Of a stretch of DNA of 20,263 bases, positions 909 through 14,185 are shown piece by piece. How positions within the stretch are numbered: position 1 is the stretch's first letter; every line of letters begins with the position of its first letter. The translations under genes and the position numbers were made by a program. Source of the stretch: a virus; the IMG/VR virus record IMGVR_UViG_3300043449_001046, positions 1-20,263 of that record; one strand, 5' to 3'. Below the pieces are notes generated by a model. That model saw nothing but the letters and a program-made list of their open reading frames with translations, was not told the DNA's origin and searched no databases.

Positions 909-1697
909 TTACTTTAGAAACTTTAGAAGAGTGCGAGCTTCTTTTGCGGGAACGTCTGACCAAGACTTCCACTCTTTTGCCGCTTCATTGCGATAAGTTT
1001 CTTCCTTCCACAATTCTCTGAGCCAAGTTTTAAAATCCACGAACTCACCACTAGAATAAATATCCGTAAACTTCTTTTGCAGAACGCCTTGAGGAGAAAC
1101 GTCGGCAGATCCTTCATTAGCCGCAGGAGCTTTCGTTCCGTTGCCTTTTGCAATCTCGTCTTCGCCAACGATATGAATGCCAAGATAATTGCGAACAGCC
1201 CTGACAAATGCACGATTGGCGGCAATTGTTTCCAAAAACTTCTGACCAAATCCATCCGTGTTATCAAATGTAGCATTGGCTACATCCATAGTATTAATAG
1301 AAGACCAGCTTTCATCTCCATCAAGCTTATTTGTCGTTTCAAAACTATTGATCCAATCAATTTGGCATGTAGCGACAACATAATCCTTTTCCAACTTTGG
1401 AAATTGAAAATGAACTCTGGTATAGCCACGAAGCTTGGCAATCTCTTTAATGCCAGCAAGTTTAATCAAAAGCTGATCGTCTCGCAAACCTTCGCCAGTT
1501 TCTGGCACTGGCATATTGCGGCGGTTGAACCAATCCTTGTTTGGATAAAGATGGGCGGGGTTAACCATTGCTCTCCAATCAATTGAGCCGTCTTTCTTAA
1601 AGATATGATTTACGCCAATTAAAAGCCCGCGCTCATCACGAATTGTGGGCTTGCTCTGCTTTGTGTTCTGCTGTTCAGTTTGATTTTGATCGCTCAT
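909..1697 (-). CDS. Conserved phage protein, candidate single-strand annealing protein
   Basis: A 262-residue soluble protein I cannot assign with certainty. A polar Gln/Asn/Thr-rich N-terminus (about residues 1-20) precedes a conserved-looking core containing DDQLLIKLAGIKEIAKLRGY. Around residues 165-195 comes a helix, LETIAANRAFVRAVRNYLGI, followed by HIVGEDEI. A run of the form A-x-R-A-x-x-R-A-x-R-x-x-L-G-I followed by acidic residues is reminiscent of single-strand annealing proteins of the Erf/Sak/Rad52 type, so a recombination role is possible. After a Gly/Ala/Asn-rich linker, a C-terminal helical region of about 45 residues contains several Trp and Lys. The ATG at 1697 overlaps the upstream gene by 23 nt; a longer frame to 1820 would overlap it by 146 nt and is unlikely. 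Other explanations remain open. Confidence 0.5.
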   Translation of the reverse strand: MSDQNQTEQQNTKQSKPTIRDERGLLIGVNHIFKKDGSIDWRAMVNPAHLYPNKDWFNRRNMPVPETGEGLRDDQLLIKLAGIKEIAKLRGYTRVHFQFPKLEKDYVVATCQIDWINSFETTNKLDGDESWSSINTMDVANATFDNTDGFGQKFLETIAANRAFVRAVRNYLGIHIVGEDEIAKGNGTKAPAANEGSADVSPQGVLQKKFTDIYSSGEFVDFKTWLRELWKEETYRNEAAKEWKSWSDVPAKEARTLLKFLK

Positions 1698-2853
1698 CTT
1701 TGTAGATATAAAAATGTTCAGCATCTTCCCAGAATAAAGTGTCATTTGGGACTGGAGACGCTTTTGTGAATTTAGGAATATCTTTTTCCCAGAAAAGCTT
1801 GCAACTATAAACTTTTCCATCGGAAAGAAGAATCTTCTCTGATTCGAACATGTGGTTTTTATCTACATTGTCAAGAGTTTTGATTTCGTTTTTTTGAAAA
1901 ACTTCATCTTTTGACAAGCCAAAATCAAAAAATATTTCAGCAAGATCATTCCATTGAGCGTTGTCATCTGCTACTAGCGTAAAATTTATCCCTAGCGATT
2001 TTAAACTTTCAATATAATTAATATTTGTATTTTTGTCAACGATAAACATCAATGCGACAATTCGATCCTTAATAGCCGCAATCAAATTTAAATTAATTTC
2101 TTTATTTGTGATAAGGTTTATATTGGTAATTTGACAAATTTGTTGCAAAATTTTTTCATTAAAATGGTAATCCATTCTAATGTTACATATTTTATCTTTT
2201 AATATTTCAAGTTTTGGTAATGAGTTTGGAACAATTTCTATTACTGGCTTATGACAGTCTCTACCCATAAAAATTGTTTCGACTTTATCAAGATCATTTT
2301 TTATATTTAATTGATCTAATACGGCTTTTGCAATTTTTTCTGGCTTAATAGTATTTATGTTTTTCTTTTCTTCATTAAATGAAAAGGATGGTTTTCCGTA
2401 AATAGCCCAATCTGGCTCAATTAAAACTTGGTTATCTGGATTCCCCCAAACTGGGGCAGAGTTTTGAGCGTAACAATACGAATACAAAACGACCATTTTT
2501 TTATCGAAATAACTAGCAAAATGGACGGACAAACTGTCTACTCCAAGATACATGGAGCTATTTTTTATGATATACGGTAGATGCTTTAGGCTAGTTTTCC
2601 CTCTAAAATCTAAATCACATCCAGCTACAGATTGATCTGTAGGAAGCCCAACATGAACAATTTTATAATCTGGGGCGTATTGCTTGATAAAGCGAAAAAC
2701 TTTAGACCAATAATCATACTGTCTTGAGTTGCCTTTGCCGCTAGTTTGAAAAACTATGTATTTATCCAGTGTTATTGGATAATAATGCTCAAAAACAAAC
2801 GGTTTATCAATTTTTACTCCGCAAGATAATGCGTATCTATTTAATATATGCAT
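1675..2853 (-). CDS. GT9 (heptosyltransferase-like) C-terminal half plus unknown phage domain
   Basis: A 392-residue ORF whose first about 190 residues look like the second, nucleotide-sugar-binding half of a GT9 glycosyltransferase (ADP-heptose:LPS heptosyltransferase type). Visible marks are YIVFQTSGKGNSRQYD, a strand/turn KIVHVGLPTD, and MYLGVDSLSVHFASYFDKK at about 101-119, the typical GT9 D-S-x-x-x-H-x-A loop. The matching N-terminal half is at the end of the upstream ORF, in a frame one base away; the two are separated by TAAAATG. Residues about 196-392 form a different domain ending in ILLSDGKVYSCKLFW and FWEDAEHFYIYKD, which I associate with phage sugar-related proteins but cannot name. 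The ORF is either expressed by reinitiation or frameshift, or the split is a sequencing artefact at an A5 run. The sugar and acceptor are unknown. Confidence 0.7.
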   Translation of the reverse strand: MHILNRYALSCGVKIDKPFVFEHYYPITLDKYIVFQTSGKGNSRQYDYWSKVFRFIKQYAPDYKIVHVGLPTDQSVAGCDLDFRGKTSLKHLPYIIKNSSMYLGVDSLSVHFASYFDKKMVVLYSYCYAQNSAPVWGNPDNQVLIEPDWAIYGKPSFSFNEEKKNINTIKPEKIAKAVLDQLNIKNDLDKVETIFMGRDCHKPVIEIVPNSLPKLEILKDKICNIRMDYHFNEKILQQICQITNINLITNKEINLNLIAAIKDRIVALMFIVDKNTNINYIESLKSLGINFTLVADDNAQWNDLAEIFFDFGLSKDEVFQKNEIKTLDNVDKNHMFESEKILLSDGKVYSCKLFWEKDIPKFTKASPVPNDTLFWEDAEHFYIYKDERSKSN

Positions 2854-2863
2854 TTTAATTTTT
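2851..2863 (-). other. A5 slippage site / stop-start junction splitting a GT9 domain
   Basis: On the minus strand the junction reads ATT AAA AAT TAA A ATG. A lysine codon inside an A5 run (2859-2863) is followed two codons later by the UAA stop of the upstream ORF, and the downstream ATG begins 1 nt after it. Moving one base forward on the A5 run (AAA to AAA re-pairing) gives an open frame through ATT AAA ATG into the second ORF, restoring a continuous GT9 domain. Equally, TAAAATG is a normal layout for termination-reinitiation, and a one-base homopolymer error would give the same picture. Confidence 0.5.
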
Positions 2864-4756
2864 AATATTAAGTTCTATTTTATCTTTGCCGTTATGCTGG
2901 TAATCAAAAATCTTTTGCGTTCCAATGTGCGGAAGATATACGATATCAAAATATCCAGAGTTTTTCCCATGTCCTTCCATAGTTAATATATTTTCCATAT
3001 ATGGATGAAAAAGCAAAACTTTATGAACGAACTGGTTGCCATGCAATAACTCCGCGTATTCAGGCTTGGTGGAAAAATAAATATTATAATCTGGGTATAA
3101 TTTTTTTATCGAAGGAAGTAGAGATGTAGACAAAAATACATCTCCAGCGCTTTCTGGCATAACAAAAAGAATTCTTTTACCTTGATCCGACTTATCTAAA
3201 ACATCAGATAATTCTACTTTTAAGCCTTCGTTATTTTCTTTGATGGCGACTTGCTTAAAATAATTTAAAATGGCATCCCTTGACATTCCATTTTTTAATT
3301 GCTGTTTCCAATGCTTAAATCCATCATCATTTTCATCTAGATTTACTTTAAGAATATTTTTGTAAAGATCGATTATCCAAGAACTATCATCTTCAGTTTC
3401 GAGCGGAATATAATTTGGATTTCTTGGCTCAAATTTACTGTCGTAATTCCAAGGAATATTTGGAGCGGAGTCTATGATTTGCTCTAGCTTTTTCCCGATA
3501 ACCTCTGCTGAAAGATTTTCTAAAACAAACTTTTTGGCCATTTGCCCCATTTTATTCTTTTCGGCTTCTGGCATCTTGTAAACAACTTCCAATTGGTGAG
3601 CGATTGATTCTGGTAAAGTTGTTGCCTTAATAAAATTTGTTCCTGGTTCATAGTAAGGTTTCCAGTCAAGAGGTAAGCCTCCGCTGTCTTCTTTACAAAA
3701 GTCTTCGCCGCAGGAGTAGTTTGTAGCAAGGGTTATTAATTCTGTAAGCTTAGCTTCTGTTATTGGGATTTCTTGCCCTCCGCTTGTAAATGGATGGCAG
3801 TAAACATCCATTAAATTATAAATCTCGTTAAGCTGAGTTTCGTTGACTCCATGAGTAATATTAGTTGTTTCAACTGAATCTGGACTGCCGCAAAAATTAC
3901 ATTTGATCTTCTGGCCGCAGAATGGTTTAATTTCATACTGCTTGCATTTTTTACAAAAATATGTGGTTAAAATATCATTATGATTTATACCATTATCTTT
4001 GATTAACTGATTAATATCCCAACCTTCTGACCAGTGTGTATGAAGTAAAAGTTTAGCATTACAACTCGGATTCTTTTGCTTGAAAAGTTTAAACCCTTGA
4101 AGCAGATTTGGTACGCTTTTTCTTAATTGATTTCTGAACACGAACCCAATGATGAATTCTTCATTGAGGCTGAATTTATTTCGTATAGATTTTTTTTCAG
4201 TTGGGCTTAATTTACAAAACGACTTAGTTTCAGTAGCTCCTCTTAATGTTTTTACAGAGCCCTTTAGATATCCAAGTCTTTCGACCTCCCTTTCCGCAAA
4301 AGAAGACCAAGCGTAATAATGTTTTACTTTAGGTATGATTCTTTTTGCTTCCGCATAAAGAGGAAGAGAGTCAAGCGTCGTCCAAATCATGCAGTTTTCA
4401 TTCCACCACTTCCTATCTACTAAAGGAGATAAGCCCCAAATATCTTCTATACCGATATAAAAATCTGGCTTAACTTCTTTAATTAAATTATCTATTTCCA
4501 ATAGACCATAGGCTGCATTTCTTGTCTGATTTGGATCGCTGGAAATAGCTTGAAGTTTTGACAAGCTAGGTAAAGTGCCATAAGCCTTCCAAGGCAAAGA
4601 CTTTAATTCTTCGAAATCTTTGGGTTTACTATTAGCAAATTCTACAATGTTGTATTTGCCAGTTTTGTAAAGATAACGAAGAACATTTTTCATGTTCTTG
4701 CCGAATCCCGTGAACATTCGGCTATAATTGCTGTGAAAGACTACGGTTTTTTTCAT
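2855..4756 (-). CDS. GT4-type glycosyltransferase with zinc-ribbon insert, DUF4214-like domain and GT9 N-terminal half
   Basis: A 633-residue multidomain protein. Residues about 1-430 form a GT-B glycosyltransferase of the GT4 kind: a Rossmann-like start (TVVFHSNYSRMFTGFGKNMK), a middle strand GFVFRNQLRKSVPNLLQGF beginning the second Rossmann half, and GGQEIPITEAKLTEL at about 326-340, the E-rich donor-binding region. Between them sits a zinc-ribbon-like insert with C268-x2-C271 and C286-x2-C289, plus C280. Residues about 458-507 (WIIDLYKNILKVNLD, then GFKHWKQQLKNGMSRDAI) match the DUF4214 pattern. Residues about 527-633 begin a GT9 domain (RILFVMPESAGDVFLSTSLL, then YPDYNIYFST and YAELL) that stops early and continues in the next ORF. 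It overlaps the upstream gene by ATGA. It probably decorates a virion, phage DNA or host surface sugar; the target is not visible. Confidence 0.8.
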   Translation of the reverse strand: MKKTVVFHSNYSRMFTGFGKNMKNVLRYLYKTGKYNIVEFANSKPKDFEELKSLPWKAYGTLPSLSKLQAISSDPNQTRNAAYGLLEIDNLIKEVKPDFYIGIEDIWGLSPLVDRKWWNENCMIWTTLDSLPLYAEAKRIIPKVKHYYAWSSFAEREVERLGYLKGSVKTLRGATETKSFCKLSPTEKKSIRNKFSLNEEFIIGFVFRNQLRKSVPNLLQGFKLFKQKNPSCNAKLLLHTHWSEGWDINQLIKDNGINHNDILTTYFCKKCKQYEIKPFCGQKIKCNFCGSPDSVETTNITHGVNETQLNEIYNLMDVYCHPFTSGGQEIPITEAKLTELITLATNYSCGEDFCKEDSGGLPLDWKPYYEPGTNFIKATTLPESIAHQLEVVYKMPEAEKNKMGQMAKKFVLENLSAEVIGKKLEQIIDSAPNIPWNYDSKFEPRNPNYIPLETEDDSSWIIDLYKNILKVNLDENDDGFKHWKQQLKNGMSRDAILNYFKQVAIKENNEGLKVELSDVLDKSDQGKRILFVMPESAGDVFLSTSLLPSIKKLYPDYNIYFSTKPEYAELLHGNQFVHKVLLFHPYMENILTMEGHGKNSGYFDIVYLPHIGTQKIFDYQHNGKDKIELNIKN

Positions 4757-6880: not shown

Positions 6881-7870
6881 CTATTTCCACAGATAGTAGA
6901 AGTCTCTTATTAATTTGTCAAGTGTTTTTGAAACAAAAAGTTTATTGGAAATGTCTTCGTAGCAAGCCTCTGATTGATTAATCCAATACTTTAGCTTTGA
7001 TGGATTTTTAATTCCGAAAGTTATATATTCAGATATAATTTTTGAATTAAAATAAGCAAAGTTAAACAGCCTTGATTGCTCTTTGTACTGATAAAGAACC
7101 TTCGCTTTTTCCTTGGGCAAAAGATCAACAAAAGAATCGAAAACTGAATCAGAGCAGTTAAGAGTTTGTTTGGCAAGCCAAATGTCTAAATAGATATTTG
7201 CATTAGCGGCGTATTCAAAATTAACAAATTTAAAATTGTCTCCAGTATAAATAATGTTATCTAAAGATAAGTCAAAATGCGCTAGACCACAATGATTTAT
7301 GTTATCTTTATACTCTTGTCTAAACACAGCTTTTGCTGACGCAAATAAATCAACGACTGGATATGTCTTAAAGACCATCATGCTTTCTCTTGGCAAAAGA
7401 GAATTAAAAGTATTTATAGTATTATCGGCGCTTCCTAATTTTACAGAATGCATCTGACTAATACTTTTAGCGAAAGTCCTGTGCAAATTTAATTTTGGAC
7501 TTAATGGATAATTTGAGATGTCTGACAAAAACCTGCCACTAGGTATTTCAAAGCAAATATAGTTAAACTCGTCAGACTCTGATGAGTGGCATATTATTTT
7601 AGGATGAAAAGAAAAATTATTACTCCAAAGATCTTGCCAAAAATTAGGCATATCTGGAGACAAGTTTATCTTTAAAAGATAAGGCTTGTTTTCGCTAACA
7701 ATTAAATAACAATCATATATGGGATGAACGTAATGCTTCAAACATTGGCTTATTTTACTACCAATTTTCTGTTCTACAGAAGCTTTAACTAAAGCTAAAA
7801 GCTCCTCTTCTATTGGAAGAAGGGTCTTTTCATGCTTTACAACTTGCAAATGATTTCTTGGTCTTTCCAT
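6881..7870 (-). CDS. Choline kinase/APH-like phosphotransferase with altered metal-binding motif
   Basis: A 329-residue protein with the protein-kinase-like fold of the aminoglycoside phosphotransferase/choline kinase (LicA) group. Residues about 53-69 (DCYLIVSENKPYLLKIN) look like the ATP-binding strand with K67. Residues 198-205 (HFDLSLDN) are the catalytic-loop HxDxxxxN signature, and FVNFEYAANANIYLDIW at about 215-231 matches the metal-binding strand. In active relatives that strand reads I/V-D-F/W-E; here the Asp is Asn (N217), so phosphate transfer may be weakened or lost. Known relatives phosphorylate choline or other small alcohols and amines; the substrate here is unknown. The ATG at 7870 overlaps the Clp gene by 41 nt and has GGAG about 15 nt upstream. 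It is likely co-transcribed with clp and ends at the 6621-6648 terminator. Confidence 0.75.
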   Translation of the reverse strand: MERPRNHLQVVKHEKTLLPIEEELLALVKASVEQKIGSKISQCLKHYVHPIYDCYLIVSENKPYLLKINLSPDMPNFWQDLWSNNFSFHPKIICHSSESDEFNYICFEIPSGRFLSDISNYPLSPKLNLHRTFAKSISQMHSVKLGSADNTINTFNSLLPRESMMVFKTYPVVDLFASAKAVFRQEYKDNINHCGLAHFDLSLDNIIYTGDNFKFVNFEYAANANIYLDIWLAKQTLNCSDSVFDSFVDLLPKEKAKVLYQYKEQSRLFNFAYFNSKIISEYITFGIKNPSKLKYWINQSEACYEDISNKLFVSKTLDKLIRDFYYLWK

Positions 7871-10260: not shown

Positions 10261-12825
10261 TTAAGATTCGATCTGTGATAACTTTGTGTATATCTTTTCT
10301 GTGAGGATTGTCAAGCCATTTAGGAAAATTGAATCATCGGCTTTGGAGCCGTAAACGATGACGATATCATCTTCTTTAGGGGTTTTCCCACCGCCTTCGT
10401 AGTACTGCGTAAATTTATCATCTCTTCCTCCGTCTGTCAAGCGACAGACCATTTGCCCATATTCATCTGAAATTTTAACAAATAAATATGGACGCCCAGC
10501 CCTGCTGACTTTTTTCTTAGCTTCTTTAACGACGCCAACCATTTTTACATTTTGTCTAAGATCTACTAGAGAAGCTTCGTAGGTAGTATGTAGGCGATCT
10601 TCGCCATCACTAAAAACTTCTTTTAATTTATAAGTATAGCTATAACCAAGAAGCCGCTTTTCAAAAAACCAATTAGCGAACTTCTCGTATTTTTTATTCA
10701 TATCATAAATCTTTTTGTATGGCTCATACTTCTTTTTAAATGTTTCGTACCTGCTTTCTTTCATGAAAGGCTTACCATCATCTCCAACTGATTTGTTTTT
10801 AACCGCATCCGCAATAATATTAAGGACATCATAATTAAATTTAGAGCCCAACAGTTTAACATTTCTTTTCTCTCTGTCTGACAAAATATTATAGCTCTGA
10901 GCCTCAAGAACAAGTCTACAACGCTTCTCACTAAAACTAGATAGAGTCCCAGCTTGGATTAAAGCGGATAGAACTCCAATATTAACTCCAGCCTCTTTGG
11001 CTCCATCAAAACAATCTATCTTATTGGCAAACTCTGTTTCTCTAAAGTTAAGAAGATTCTCTAAAACTTTATCGGAAACTCCCTTAATTGCGTTTAGTCC
11101 AAATCTAATATTGTTGCCTTCGATTTCAAAATCAGCCTTTGACTTTGAAAGGTCTGGAGGAAGCAAACGGATATCAAAGAATTGAAGTTCTTGCGAGATT
11201 GTCTCAATTTCTTCGTGCGGATTGGGTTCATGCTTTGAGGACTTGAGCAAAGCTAAAAAGAATTCTTTTGGATGATTAAACTTTAAATAAGTAGTTAGTG
11301 CAGAAAGAGTTGCATAAGATACGGCGTGAGAAGCATTAAACGAATAGTTCGCACTATCTTCGGCTACCTTCCAGAGAACATCTGCAACGGCTGGATCAAG
11401 ATTATTAGCAGCAACTTTCTCGCGAATCTTCTGCTGCCAAGCTGGCATCTCGCTTACTTTCTTTTTGCCCACTATACGACGCACTGTCTCCGCTTCATCA
11501 AGAGTAAAGCCCACTTTAACGATCATTTTCATCAACTGCTCTTGAAAGATTGGAATGCCGCCAGTTACATTTAAAATGTCGTCGAAGAATGGATGAACAG
11601 ACTGAGAATCGCCAGTTTGAACATATCTAGCGTATTGATCAAGGAAGTCCAGCGCGCCTGGTCGAGCGAGGGACAGGACGCAAGCAAGCTCAAGCATATT
11701 CCTAGGCTTCACTTTCTTACAGACATGAAAATTTGTGTTAGCTTCGATTTGAAATAAACCTTTTGGATTAGACAGGTCTTGTAGGAACTTGTAAGTTGAA
11801 ATATTATCAAAGTCCAAATTCTTGAAGTCTAACCCTAAACGCTGGCAGGTATCATAAACTACAGTTAAAGTTCTAAGGCCGAGAATATCAAACTTAACTG
11901 TAATTTCCGATACGTTATTCATGTCGTAGGCGGAAACGATTTCACCATCTCCAGTCTTTTGGAGAGGCATGATATCTTCATTATTGTAATATGAAATTGA
12001 TATGCCAGATGGGTGAACTCCAGTATTTTTATTTAAGCCTTCAATTTTCTTAGCAATTTTAAATACTTTTGGATTTTTATCACAAAAAGCTTTAAACTGT
12101 TCGCTTTCGTCATAAGCGTCTTTGAGGGCGAAGACCTTACCAAATTGCTTTGGAATTACATCACTAACTGCATTAACCTCGTCTTCTGACATCTCGCCGA
12201 CAATCTTACCGCACTCTTTAATGCAAAGTTTACCAGTAAGTGTATTCATGGTAAGAATCTTGCAAGTCTTACCGGCGTACTTTGTTTTAATATAATTAAT
12301 AACATCCTGACGCTTAGAAAATTCAATGTCATTATCAACGTCAGGCATCAGAGAACCGTCAAGATACGTCACGCCATCTACAACGATCTTTTTAGCGCGA
12401 CTCTTTGAAACGAAGCGCTCAAAGAAAAGTCCGTTCTTGATTGGATCAACGTTTGTAACGCCGATCAAAAAAAGAACGAGAGAGCCAGCCGCAGAACCAC
12501 GGCCATAACCAGTAGGAATGTTATGTTCATGAGCGTAATTAAGAATGTCCCAATTAAGCAGAATGTAATCCACGAAACCAAGTTCGTCAAATACCGCCAG
12601 TTCGTATTTTGCTCGTTCATAATAATCTTGTTTATTTTGTAGTTTATCTATGCCCTTTGTCTTGACAGCCTTTAAGCAAAGCTGTCTTAAAAATTCAAAG
12701 TTAGAAACAGATGGATTAATATTAAGAGACTCATAGTATTTAGAGTCAATCTTAATCTCTGGCAAGCGAACACCAGGAGGAACTGGATGTTCATATTTTT
12801 GAAAACAGTTTAATAGATCACTCAT
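10261..12825 (-). CDS. dnaE: DNA polymerase III alpha subunit, polymerase core (PHP-less)
   Basis: An 854-residue C-family DNA polymerase core; the replicase extends primers on the phage genome. It starts where the DnaE polymerase part normally begins after PHP (PPGVRLPEI). Visible motifs: YELAVFDELGFVDYILLNWD, then GYGRGSAAGSL (about 107-116, palm triphosphate-binding loop), PDVDNDIEF (161-169; D162 and D164 are the first two catalytic Asp, as in PDFDVDF), VHPSGISIS, and VKFDILGLRTLTV (310-322; D313 is the third catalytic Asp). SYNFNASHAVSYATLSA is also typical. Residues about 755-795 look like the OB-fold. A PHP domain is missing, but a PHP-like ORF lies two genes upstream; together they give about 1100 residues, the normal DnaE size. 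The start overlaps the exonuclease stop by ATGA, with GGGGGT upstream. Catalytic residues are intact. Confidence 0.95.
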   Translation of the reverse strand: MSDLLNCFQKYEHPVPPGVRLPEIKIDSKYYESLNINPSVSNFEFLRQLCLKAVKTKGIDKLQNKQDYYERAKYELAVFDELGFVDYILLNWDILNYAHEHNIPTGYGRGSAAGSLVLFLIGVTNVDPIKNGLFFERFVSKSRAKKIVVDGVTYLDGSLMPDVDNDIEFSKRQDVINYIKTKYAGKTCKILTMNTLTGKLCIKECGKIVGEMSEDEVNAVSDVIPKQFGKVFALKDAYDESEQFKAFCDKNPKVFKIAKKIEGLNKNTGVHPSGISISYYNNEDIMPLQKTGDGEIVSAYDMNNVSEITVKFDILGLRTLTVVYDTCQRLGLDFKNLDFDNISTYKFLQDLSNPKGLFQIEANTNFHVCKKVKPRNMLELACVLSLARPGALDFLDQYARYVQTGDSQSVHPFFDDILNVTGGIPIFQEQLMKMIVKVGFTLDEAETVRRIVGKKKVSEMPAWQQKIREKVAANNLDPAVADVLWKVAEDSANYSFNASHAVSYATLSALTTYLKFNHPKEFFLALLKSSKHEPNPHEEIETISQELQFFDIRLLPPDLSKSKADFEIEGNNIRFGLNAIKGVSDKVLENLLNFRETEFANKIDCFDGAKEAGVNIGVLSALIQAGTLSSFSEKRCRLVLEAQSYNILSDREKRNVKLLGSKFNYDVLNIIADAVKNKSVGDDGKPFMKESRYETFKKKYEPYKKIYDMNKKYEKFANWFFEKRLLGYSYTYKLKEVFSDGEDRLHTTYEASLVDLRQNVKMVGVVKEAKKKVSRAGRPYLFVKISDEYGQMVCRLTDGGRDDKFTQYYEGGGKTPKEDDIVIVYGSKADDSIFLNGLTILTEKIYTKLSQIES

Positions 12826-13448
12826 ATATCTACCCCCATGATAAGCTTGCGAAAAATCTTATAATTCATTGTGATATCGTACAGCGCATTGTGCAGTTTT
12901 GATGGATCATGGTCAATACCAAAATGCCTTAAAAGAAAAGCTTGATTAGTTTTAAGTCCCTTTTCTCTAAAATTCATTAGCTTCATTTGCCAAGAAAGGG
13001 TATCTCCAGAAGGTTTAATATCTTTAAATAAAGCAGTCGCAAGGGCTTTTGTATCTACAATCCGAGTCAAAAATGACCAATCATTTTTTACTCCAATAGT
13101 GTTCATCAACACATTAATAATATAAATATCGTAGCCCAAAAGATTTTGTCCAACAAGAATATTCTTTTGGTCGTATAGATATGGTGCAAATTTTTGCCAA
13201 ACCTGCATGGGCTCTTTTGCATTTTGCAAATAAAAGTCTTTATTAAAATTAGTTATTCTGGCAGCATCTTCTGAAACATTCAAATCATTGAATAAAATAT
13301 ATTCATCGTGCTGCTCAAGAATATTATCGCCCTGACAAACTATCCATGAAAGTTGCCAAGGGCGAGATGATGTTAATGACAGCCCTTCTGTCTCGGTGTC
13401 AAAAACAACATACTTTTGATTAATATTATGCTTCAATAAACCGTTCAT
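12822..13448 (-). CDS. dnaQ: DEDDh 3'-5' proofreading exonuclease (DnaQ-like)
   Basis: A 208-residue RNase-T/epsilon-type exonuclease that would remove misinserted nucleotides for the adjacent polymerase. The four metal ligands and the catalytic His are visible: D17 and E19 in VVFDTETEGLSL, D107 in VGQNLLGYDIYII, and H186 with D191 in KLHNALYDITMNYKIF. This is a DEDDh pattern and the length is normal for a stand-alone exonuclease. The ATG at 13448 is chosen because AAGGAG (13454-13459) sits 5 nt before it; a TTG-led frame to 13463 would add five residues but place that Shine-Dalgarno inside the coding region. It overlaps the PHP gene and the polymerase gene by ATGA each, so the three are probably translationally coupled and work as one replicase. 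Confidence 0.92.
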   Translation of the reverse strand: MNGLLKHNINQKYVVFDTETEGLSLTSSRPWQLSWIVCQGDNILEQHDEYILFNDLNVSEDAARITNFNKDFYLQNAKEPMQVWQKFAPYLYDQKNILVGQNLLGYDIYIINVLMNTIGVKNDWSFLTRIVDTKALATALFKDIKPSGDTLSWQMKLMNFREKGLKTNQAFLLRHFGIDHDPSKLHNALYDITMNYKIFRKLIMGVDI

Positions 13449-14185
13449 GACATCTCCTTCCAAGATTCAAAGCAAAATTCTTTGCTGCCGCAGCCAGAGA
13501 GTTCTGGCGCTGAGAGACTTTGATTTTTACCCATATTACGATTACAAGCAATCTTATAAGTTACCCAAGCTTCATAATCGTCTCTATTTTTATAATAGAT
13601 AGATTTAACGTTTACCTTTGGAACATACTTTGATGAAAGAATTTGAGCGATTTCTTTATCAAACGGGAGCTTATTATCTTCTATAAAATAAACTGCATCT
13701 TTCTTGTCAAGCGGAGAGGGAATGCAATTACTAAAATAATGATAATTATTCCAAATATAAGAGTCGTAAAATGGAAAACATAGCAATACATTGTCTGTTA
13801 ATTTTTGACTTAGATCATCACTAGAAATAACTGATTCTTTTTCAGTATTAGCGAAAGTATAAATTTTATTTATATCTTTGAATCCCTGATCATTTAGTGC
13901 AAAAAGAACTACTTTGCTTTTTGAAGTCTCGACGGACTCGTAATTATTGCAAATACTGATCCTAAGTCCAAACTTTAAATGGATGTCGTGCTTTTGACAA
14001 AGCTTAAAAGCAGTAAGAAAGCCAGTTAACGAATCTTCTACCAGATGGAGTTCTTTTAGACCGTTATCTTTGACTATTGAGATAATGCTGTCCGGTCCAT
14101 CTTTCTTTTGCTTTTCTATTTCTGCGAGAGTTAGAATACTTTTTCCCGTAGAAAAGTGAGACTTAAATAGCGGTATCATTACCAC
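13445..14185 (-). CDS. PHP-like N-terminal domain of DNA polymerase III alpha, stand-alone and degenerate
   Basis: A 246-residue ORF corresponding to the PHP domain that normally begins DnaE. Support: the start (IPLFKSHFSTGKSILTLAEI), a strand-helix stretch LKELHLVEDSLTGFLTAFKLCQKHDIHLKFGLRISI that parallels A-L-x-x-TDHGNLFG...IKPIIGLE, and the end SGCGSKEFCFESWKEMS, which parallels the DnaE run SPEFYLKSPEEM. The PHP metal-binding positions are not conserved: the HVH of the first motif has become a single shifted His, TDH has become VED, and GLE has become GLR. It is therefore probably structural (polymerase folding or exonuclease docking), not a phosphoesterase. The GTG at 14185 has AAGG 9 nt upstream; an ATG at 14179 is an alternative. 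The stop overlaps the exonuclease ATG. Confidence 0.75.
   Translation of the reverse strand: MVMIPLFKSHFSTGKSILTLAEIEKQKKDGPDSIISIVKDNGLKELHLVEDSLTGFLTAFKLCQKHDIHLKFGLRISICNNYESVETSKSKVVLFALNDQGFKDINKIYTFANTEKESVISSDDLSQKLTDNVLLCFPFYDSYIWNNYHYFSNCIPSPLDKKDAVYFIEDNKLPFDKEIAQILSSKYVPKVNVKSIYYKNRDDYEAWVTYKIACNRNMGKNQSLSAPELSGCGSKEFCFESWKEMS
13454..13459 (-). promoter_or_regulatory. Shine-Dalgarno AAGGAG for the exonuclease gene
   Basis: AAGGAG lies 5 nt before the ATG at 13446-13448, inside the last codons of the PHP-like gene. It fixes the exonuclease start at ATG (M-N-G-L-L) and rules against the upstream TTG. It is one of the strongest ribosome-binding sites in the window. Confidence 0.8.

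What the first reader, a model, noticed from the sequence alone, without database searches (positions are those of the whole stretch)
2845..2880. GT9 domain split by a one-base shift at an A5 run
The upstream ORF ends with the first half of a GT9 domain and the next begins with the second half. A +1 shift on an A5 run restores one frame (N-I-K-I-K-M-H-I-L-N-R-Y). Lys-tRNA could re-pair perfectly after slipping, and the stop is two codons away. The TAAAATG layout would also allow reinitiation. If programmed, the phage would make both a GT4-DUF4214 protein and a longer GT4-DUF4214-GT9 fusion of about 1,027 residues.
Basis: partly seen in the sequence, partly recalled or inferred. Interest (0 to 1): 0.62.

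Follow-up and report, generated by a model that had tools for sequence, protein, structure and literature searches.

The report
Phage glycosyltransferase made as two chains
A phage carries a sugar-transferring enzyme of family GT9 cut into two neighbouring genes; dozens of related phages keep the same cut but change how the two genes abut, so this is a normal two-gene enzyme whose halves probably assemble, not a sequencing error and not a ribosomal frameshift.

Summary
On the minus strand P0001 (633 aa; GT4, DUF4214 and the N-half of a GT9 fold) ends at TAA 2857-2855. One base later ATG 2853 starts P0002 (392 aa; GT9 C-half plus about 200 aa). The frames differ by +1 and an A5 run lies just upstream.

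The frameshift reading fails on comparison. In 152 ORF pairs (87 distinct junctions) from viral contigs and MAGs the GT9 domain is always split at this point and never fused. The relative frame is +1 in 42, +2 in 40 and 0 in 5. The A5 run is not conserved. Sixteen junctions share no open frame. In ten a whole gene (DUF6165, an Anp1-like GT, or two small ORFs) sits between the halves. P0002 relatives always begin with ATG.

Joined in silico, the halves give a confident GT-B model (pLDDT 90) whose 30 best PDB matches are all GT9 enzymes; the junction is the one disordered linker.

Best explanation: two translationally coupled genes encode the two halves of one GT9 active site, which assemble in trans as Alg13/Alg14 and EpsE/EpsF do. 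This is a new variant of a known kind. The acceptor is unknown.

The parts
2855..4756 (-). P0001: GT4 + DUF4214 + N-terminal half of a GT9 (GT-B) domain, 633 aa
   Evidence: ORF; Pfam and PHROGs; 55 related loci
3464..4750 (-). GT4-type glycosyltransferase part of P0001
   Evidence: phrog_2170 glycosyltransferase E 3e-18; Glycos_transf_1 E 7e-5, below cut-off
3254..3391 (-). DUF4214 part of P0001; missing in the 552-571 aa relatives
   Evidence: PF13946 E 4e-5, above cut-off; alignment
2858..3181 (-). GT9 N-half (residues 526-633) with the Asp of the GD motif (D539), invariant in 87 of 87
2851..2863 (-). Junction: A5 run 2859-2863, stop TAA 2857-2855, one A, start ATG 2853-2851
   Evidence: comparison
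1675..2853 (-). P0002: GT9 C-half plus C-terminal extension, 392 aa
   Evidence: ORF; AlphaFold pLDDT 89.5
2299..2766 (-). GT9 C-half (about residues 30-185), DSxxxH motif at D106/S107/H111
   Evidence: Pfam GT9, 1psw, Foldseek GT9 hits
1678..2286 (-). C-terminal extension of P0002 (residues 190-392), with a second alpha/beta fold
   Evidence: model; alignment; no family assigned

Best explanation
P0001 and P0002 are two separate genes of one operon. The ribosome ends P0001 at TAA and reinitiates at the ATG one base later, or starts there independently. P0001 carries a GT4 enzyme whose tail is the N-terminal Rossmann half of a GT9 enzyme; P0002 supplies the C-terminal half, which in GT9 enzymes binds the nucleotide sugar. 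The halves most likely assemble in trans into one GT-B active site, giving a two-chain complex with a GT4 and a GT9 activity. Shown: the conserved split, the variable junctions, conserved motifs in both halves, and the GT9 fold of the joined halves. Inferred: coupling, physical assembly, activity. Unknown: the acceptor.
For: 152 pairs, 87 distinct junctions, 0 fused; every N-half far enough from a contig end has the C-half within 640 nt. 77 of the 87 have an overlap or a gap of at most 14 nt; termination-reinitiation works best at overlaps and very short gaps, and such pairs are enriched in heteromeric subunits (PMC10666635). A DUF6165 gene, an Anp1-like GT or two small ORFs lie between the halves in 10 junctions. 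On starred branches of the tree the frame relation changed at least 9 times and gene presence between the halves at least 5 times. The GD-motif Asp is invariant in 87/87, a K/R is kept in 82/87, and the D of the DSxxxH motif in 77/87. The joined model has pLDDT 90 and pTM 0.84, with disorder only at residues 111-117, next to the junction; Foldseek's first 30 hits are all GT9 (best E 4.7e-11 over 346 columns). Overlaps and short gaps are common in this window.
Against: No experiment shows that the halves bind or act. The joined model ties them covalently, so its domain pairing does not prove assembly in trans. The N-half match by sequence alone is weak (E 0.02). Some lineages carry N instead of D in the DSxxxH motif, so some may be inactive.
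Confidence: 0.8

Rival explanations
1. Programmed +1 frameshift on the A5 run makes a GT4-DUF4214-GT9 fusion beside the short product.
For: A5 run and +1 offset are real; Lys-tRNA could re-pair.
Against: No fused relative; required shift differs (+1, +2, 0); 16 of 87 junctions have no shared open frame; 10 hold whole genes between; A5 not conserved. The A-site codon at the slip is AAT, not a stop. Downstream RNA folding is unremarkable (z -1.4).
Confidence: 0.03
2. Assembly or sequencing error broke a single fused gene in this contig.
For: Metagenome contig; homopolymer at the site; reads not available.
Against: The 19-row clade that holds the window shows the same split, mostly as TAA-N-ATG or a 14-nt overlap. 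No fused form was found in the family.
Confidence: 0.01
3. The two genes are merely neighbours: decayed GT9 halves that act apart, for example P0002 as an independent protein with its own role.
For: P0002 has a second alpha/beta domain and could have another role. Some lineages lack D or H in the DSxxxH motif.
Against: The pair is always linked, both halves keep motifs, and they are complementary parts of one fold.
Confidence: 0.15

Closest known systems
Alg13/Alg14 (eukaryotic UDP-GlcNAc transferase)
   Same: A GT-B enzyme divided into its two domains: N-half and C-half on two chains (PMC10937113).
   Different: MurG-like relatives, not GT9; Alg14 is a membrane anchor, whereas here the N-half is the tail of a GT4 enzyme.
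EpsE/EpsF-type bacterial split GTs
   Different: MurG-like, in exopolysaccharide synthesis; not phage, not GT9.
GT9 heptosyltransferases WaaC, WaaF, TibC and 3tov
   Same: Fold of the joined halves and the GD and DSxxxH motifs.
   Different: Those are single chains; ours is never fused in 87 junctions; donor sugar not shown.

Membership tests
GT9 (Glyco_transf_9) | C-terminal domain matches the family profile above its cut-off | tested here: met
   Met in relatives (30.6, 35.4, 35.5 bits against 22); the window protein itself is just under at 18.7
GT9 (Glyco_transf_9) | N-terminal Rossmann domain with GD motif | tested here: met
   Asp invariant in 87/87; best PDB hits are GT9 N-termini but E only 0.02 and 0.06; fold match full length
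GT9 (Glyco_transf_9) | Both domains on one polypeptide | tested here: not met
   0 of 152 pairs fused
GT9 (Glyco_transf_9) | Transfer of ADP-heptose or a similar donor | not testable with these tools
   No assay
Split GT-B heteromer (Alg13/Alg14-like way of working) | N- and C-domains encoded by separate genes | tested here: met
Split GT-B heteromer (Alg13/Alg14-like way of working) | The two chains bind and only together are active | not testable with these tools
   Joined model only
Programmed +1 ribosomal frameshift gene | Conserved slip site and overlap of the two frames across relatives | tested here: not met

The most novel reading that the evidence does not exclude
A phage-specific family of obligately two-chain GT9 enzymes whose N-half is carried on a GT4 enzyme. 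One active site is then built in trans, and two sugar transfers are tied into one complex, with a third protein (DUF6165 or another GT) co-translated between the halves in some lineages.
Probability: 0.55. Interest if true: 0.5.

Novelty: new variant of a known kind. Interest (0 to 1): 0.38.

Why it matters
It turns an apparent frameshift into a conserved split enzyme. If the chains assemble, it extends natural two-chain GT-B enzymes from the MurG-like group to GT9 and to phages. It also warns that a homopolymer next to an offset ORF is weak evidence for recoding in AT-rich phages with densely packed genes.

Tried and rejected
Programmed frameshift: rejected on comparative evidence. Sequence error: rejected by the near relatives. 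Split intein or trans-splicing: no intein domain was reported at either end and each half ends within a few residues of the fold. Search of annotated phages with P0001, P0002 and the upstream gene: no match. A distant viral scan with the P0002 alignment could not run (no conserved stretch). A first mixed alignment of N- and C-halves was misaligned and discarded. RNA structure downstream of the site: unremarkable. Literature searches for phage GT9 or a split GT9 gave no report in the titles and abstracts listed from the held library.

Full report
Observation. The window is a 20,263-base virus record, 36% G+C, with its genes packed on the minus strand. P0001 (4756-2855) ends ...N-I-K-N-stop; after TAA (2857-2855) comes one A and then ATG (2853), the start of P0002 (2853-1675). 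The offset is +1 and the A5 run (T 2859-2863) is as described. P0001 shows a GT4-type glycosyltransferase (PHROG 2170, E 3e-18) and DUF4214; P0002 shows a weak GT9 match.

Is the GT9 domain really split? Yes. A profile of P0002 relatives finds E. coli WaaF (1psw), residues 242-308, as its best PDB hit. A profile of the last 119 residues of P0001 finds, as its two best hits among 177,635 sequences, two GT9 structures at their N-termini (3tov 8-67, 1psw 2-56; E 0.022 and 0.058). The halves are thus complementary. Joined in silico by reading the junction through (word AATT=N), they give a model with pLDDT 90.0 and pTM 0.84. Its only stretch below 50 is residues 111-117, next to the junction. Foldseek's first 30 PDB hits are all GT9 enzymes, the best at E 4.7e-11 over 346 columns with TM 0.58-0.60. 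The join is covalent in the model, so it does not test assembly in trans.

Are relatives fused or split? brought in viral contigs and 12 MAG contigs, mostly Bacteroidota. In all 152 pairs (87 distinct junctions, window included) the domain is split at the same linker, and no ORF holds both halves. Start minus stop (first base to first base) is +4 (TAA-N-ATG) in 20, -11 in 14, -1 (ATGA) in 14, and between -14 and +17 in the other close pairs; all 87 start with ATG. The relative frame is +1 in 42, +2 in 40 and 0 in 5. Sixteen junctions have no shared open frame, so no single shift could fuse them. In ten the halves are 380-640 bases apart with genes between: DUF6165 or a look-alike in eight, an Anp1-like GT in L118, and two small ORFs in L039 (same place as L062). 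On a tree of 86 pairs the starred branches force at least 9 changes for each of the two main frame classes and at least 5 for the inserted genes. The junction drifts while the split stays.

What of the A5 run? It is what an AT-rich genome gives: 6.9% of 15-nt windows on this strand hold A5, 2 of 20 genes here have one just before the stop, and 14 of 87 family junctions do. RNA folding downstream is unremarkable (z -1.4). The A-site codon at the slip would be AAT, not the stop.

How it most likely works. Gene pairs with overlaps or very short gaps are coupled by termination-reinitiation, which falls off steeply by about 20 nt, and such pairs are 4.5- to 8-fold enriched in subunits of heteromeric complexes in E. 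coli and H. volcanii (PMC10666635). The window pair has a 1-nt gap, and P0001 itself overlaps its upstream neighbour by 4 nt. The GD-motif Asp (D539) is invariant in 87 of 87 and the GT9-like K/R and D/H positions are mostly kept, which points to an active enzyme. Natural precedent for a GT-B active site on two chains is Alg13/Alg14 and EpsE/EpsF (PMC4973528), and separate N- and C-domains of GT-B enzymes were shown to auto-assemble when co-expressed (PMC10937113). I therefore read P0001 and P0002 as the two chains of a GT4+GT9 complex. Assembly, donor and acceptor are inferred or unknown. The setting among replication and recombination genes does not decide between modifying host surface sugars, virion proteins or phage DNA.

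Membership. In sequence motifs and fold the joined halves meet GT9. The single-chain layout of GT9 is not met. It works like a split GT-B enzyme by anatomy; binding is untested. I found no report of a split GT9 in the held library, which lacks most subscription papers.

Noticed in passing
10261-14185 (-): DNA polymerase III alpha is also in pieces: a PHP-like gene (13445-14185, just under Pfam's cut-off), an RNase_T exonuclease gene (12822-13463) and the PHP-less catalytic part (10261-12825, 854 aa). Six of seven related records have an open frame of about 853-871 aa; G004 has 1,263 aa, perhaps fused.
   Followed up: partly
3890-3955 (-): Four invariant cysteines (C268, C271, C286, C289 of P0001) look like a zinc-ribbon insert in the GT4 part.
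   Followed up: no
1678-2286 (-): C-terminal 200 residues of P0002 form a second, confidently predicted alpha/beta domain with no family name.
   Followed up: partly
L043:7658-8065, L098, L100, L102, L103, L119, L140, L152: DUF6165 genes lie between the two GT9 halves in several lineages, suggesting a functional link of DUF6165 with these glycosyltransferases (L102, L103 and L140 judged by similarity only).
   Followed up: partly
6881-7870 (-): A 329-aa protein with no Pfam match; its NHCGLAHFDLSLDNI stretch resembles phosphotransferase (APH/kinase-like) enzymes. L043 has a gene of 382 aa with a similar stretch upstream of its GT pair.
   Followed up: no
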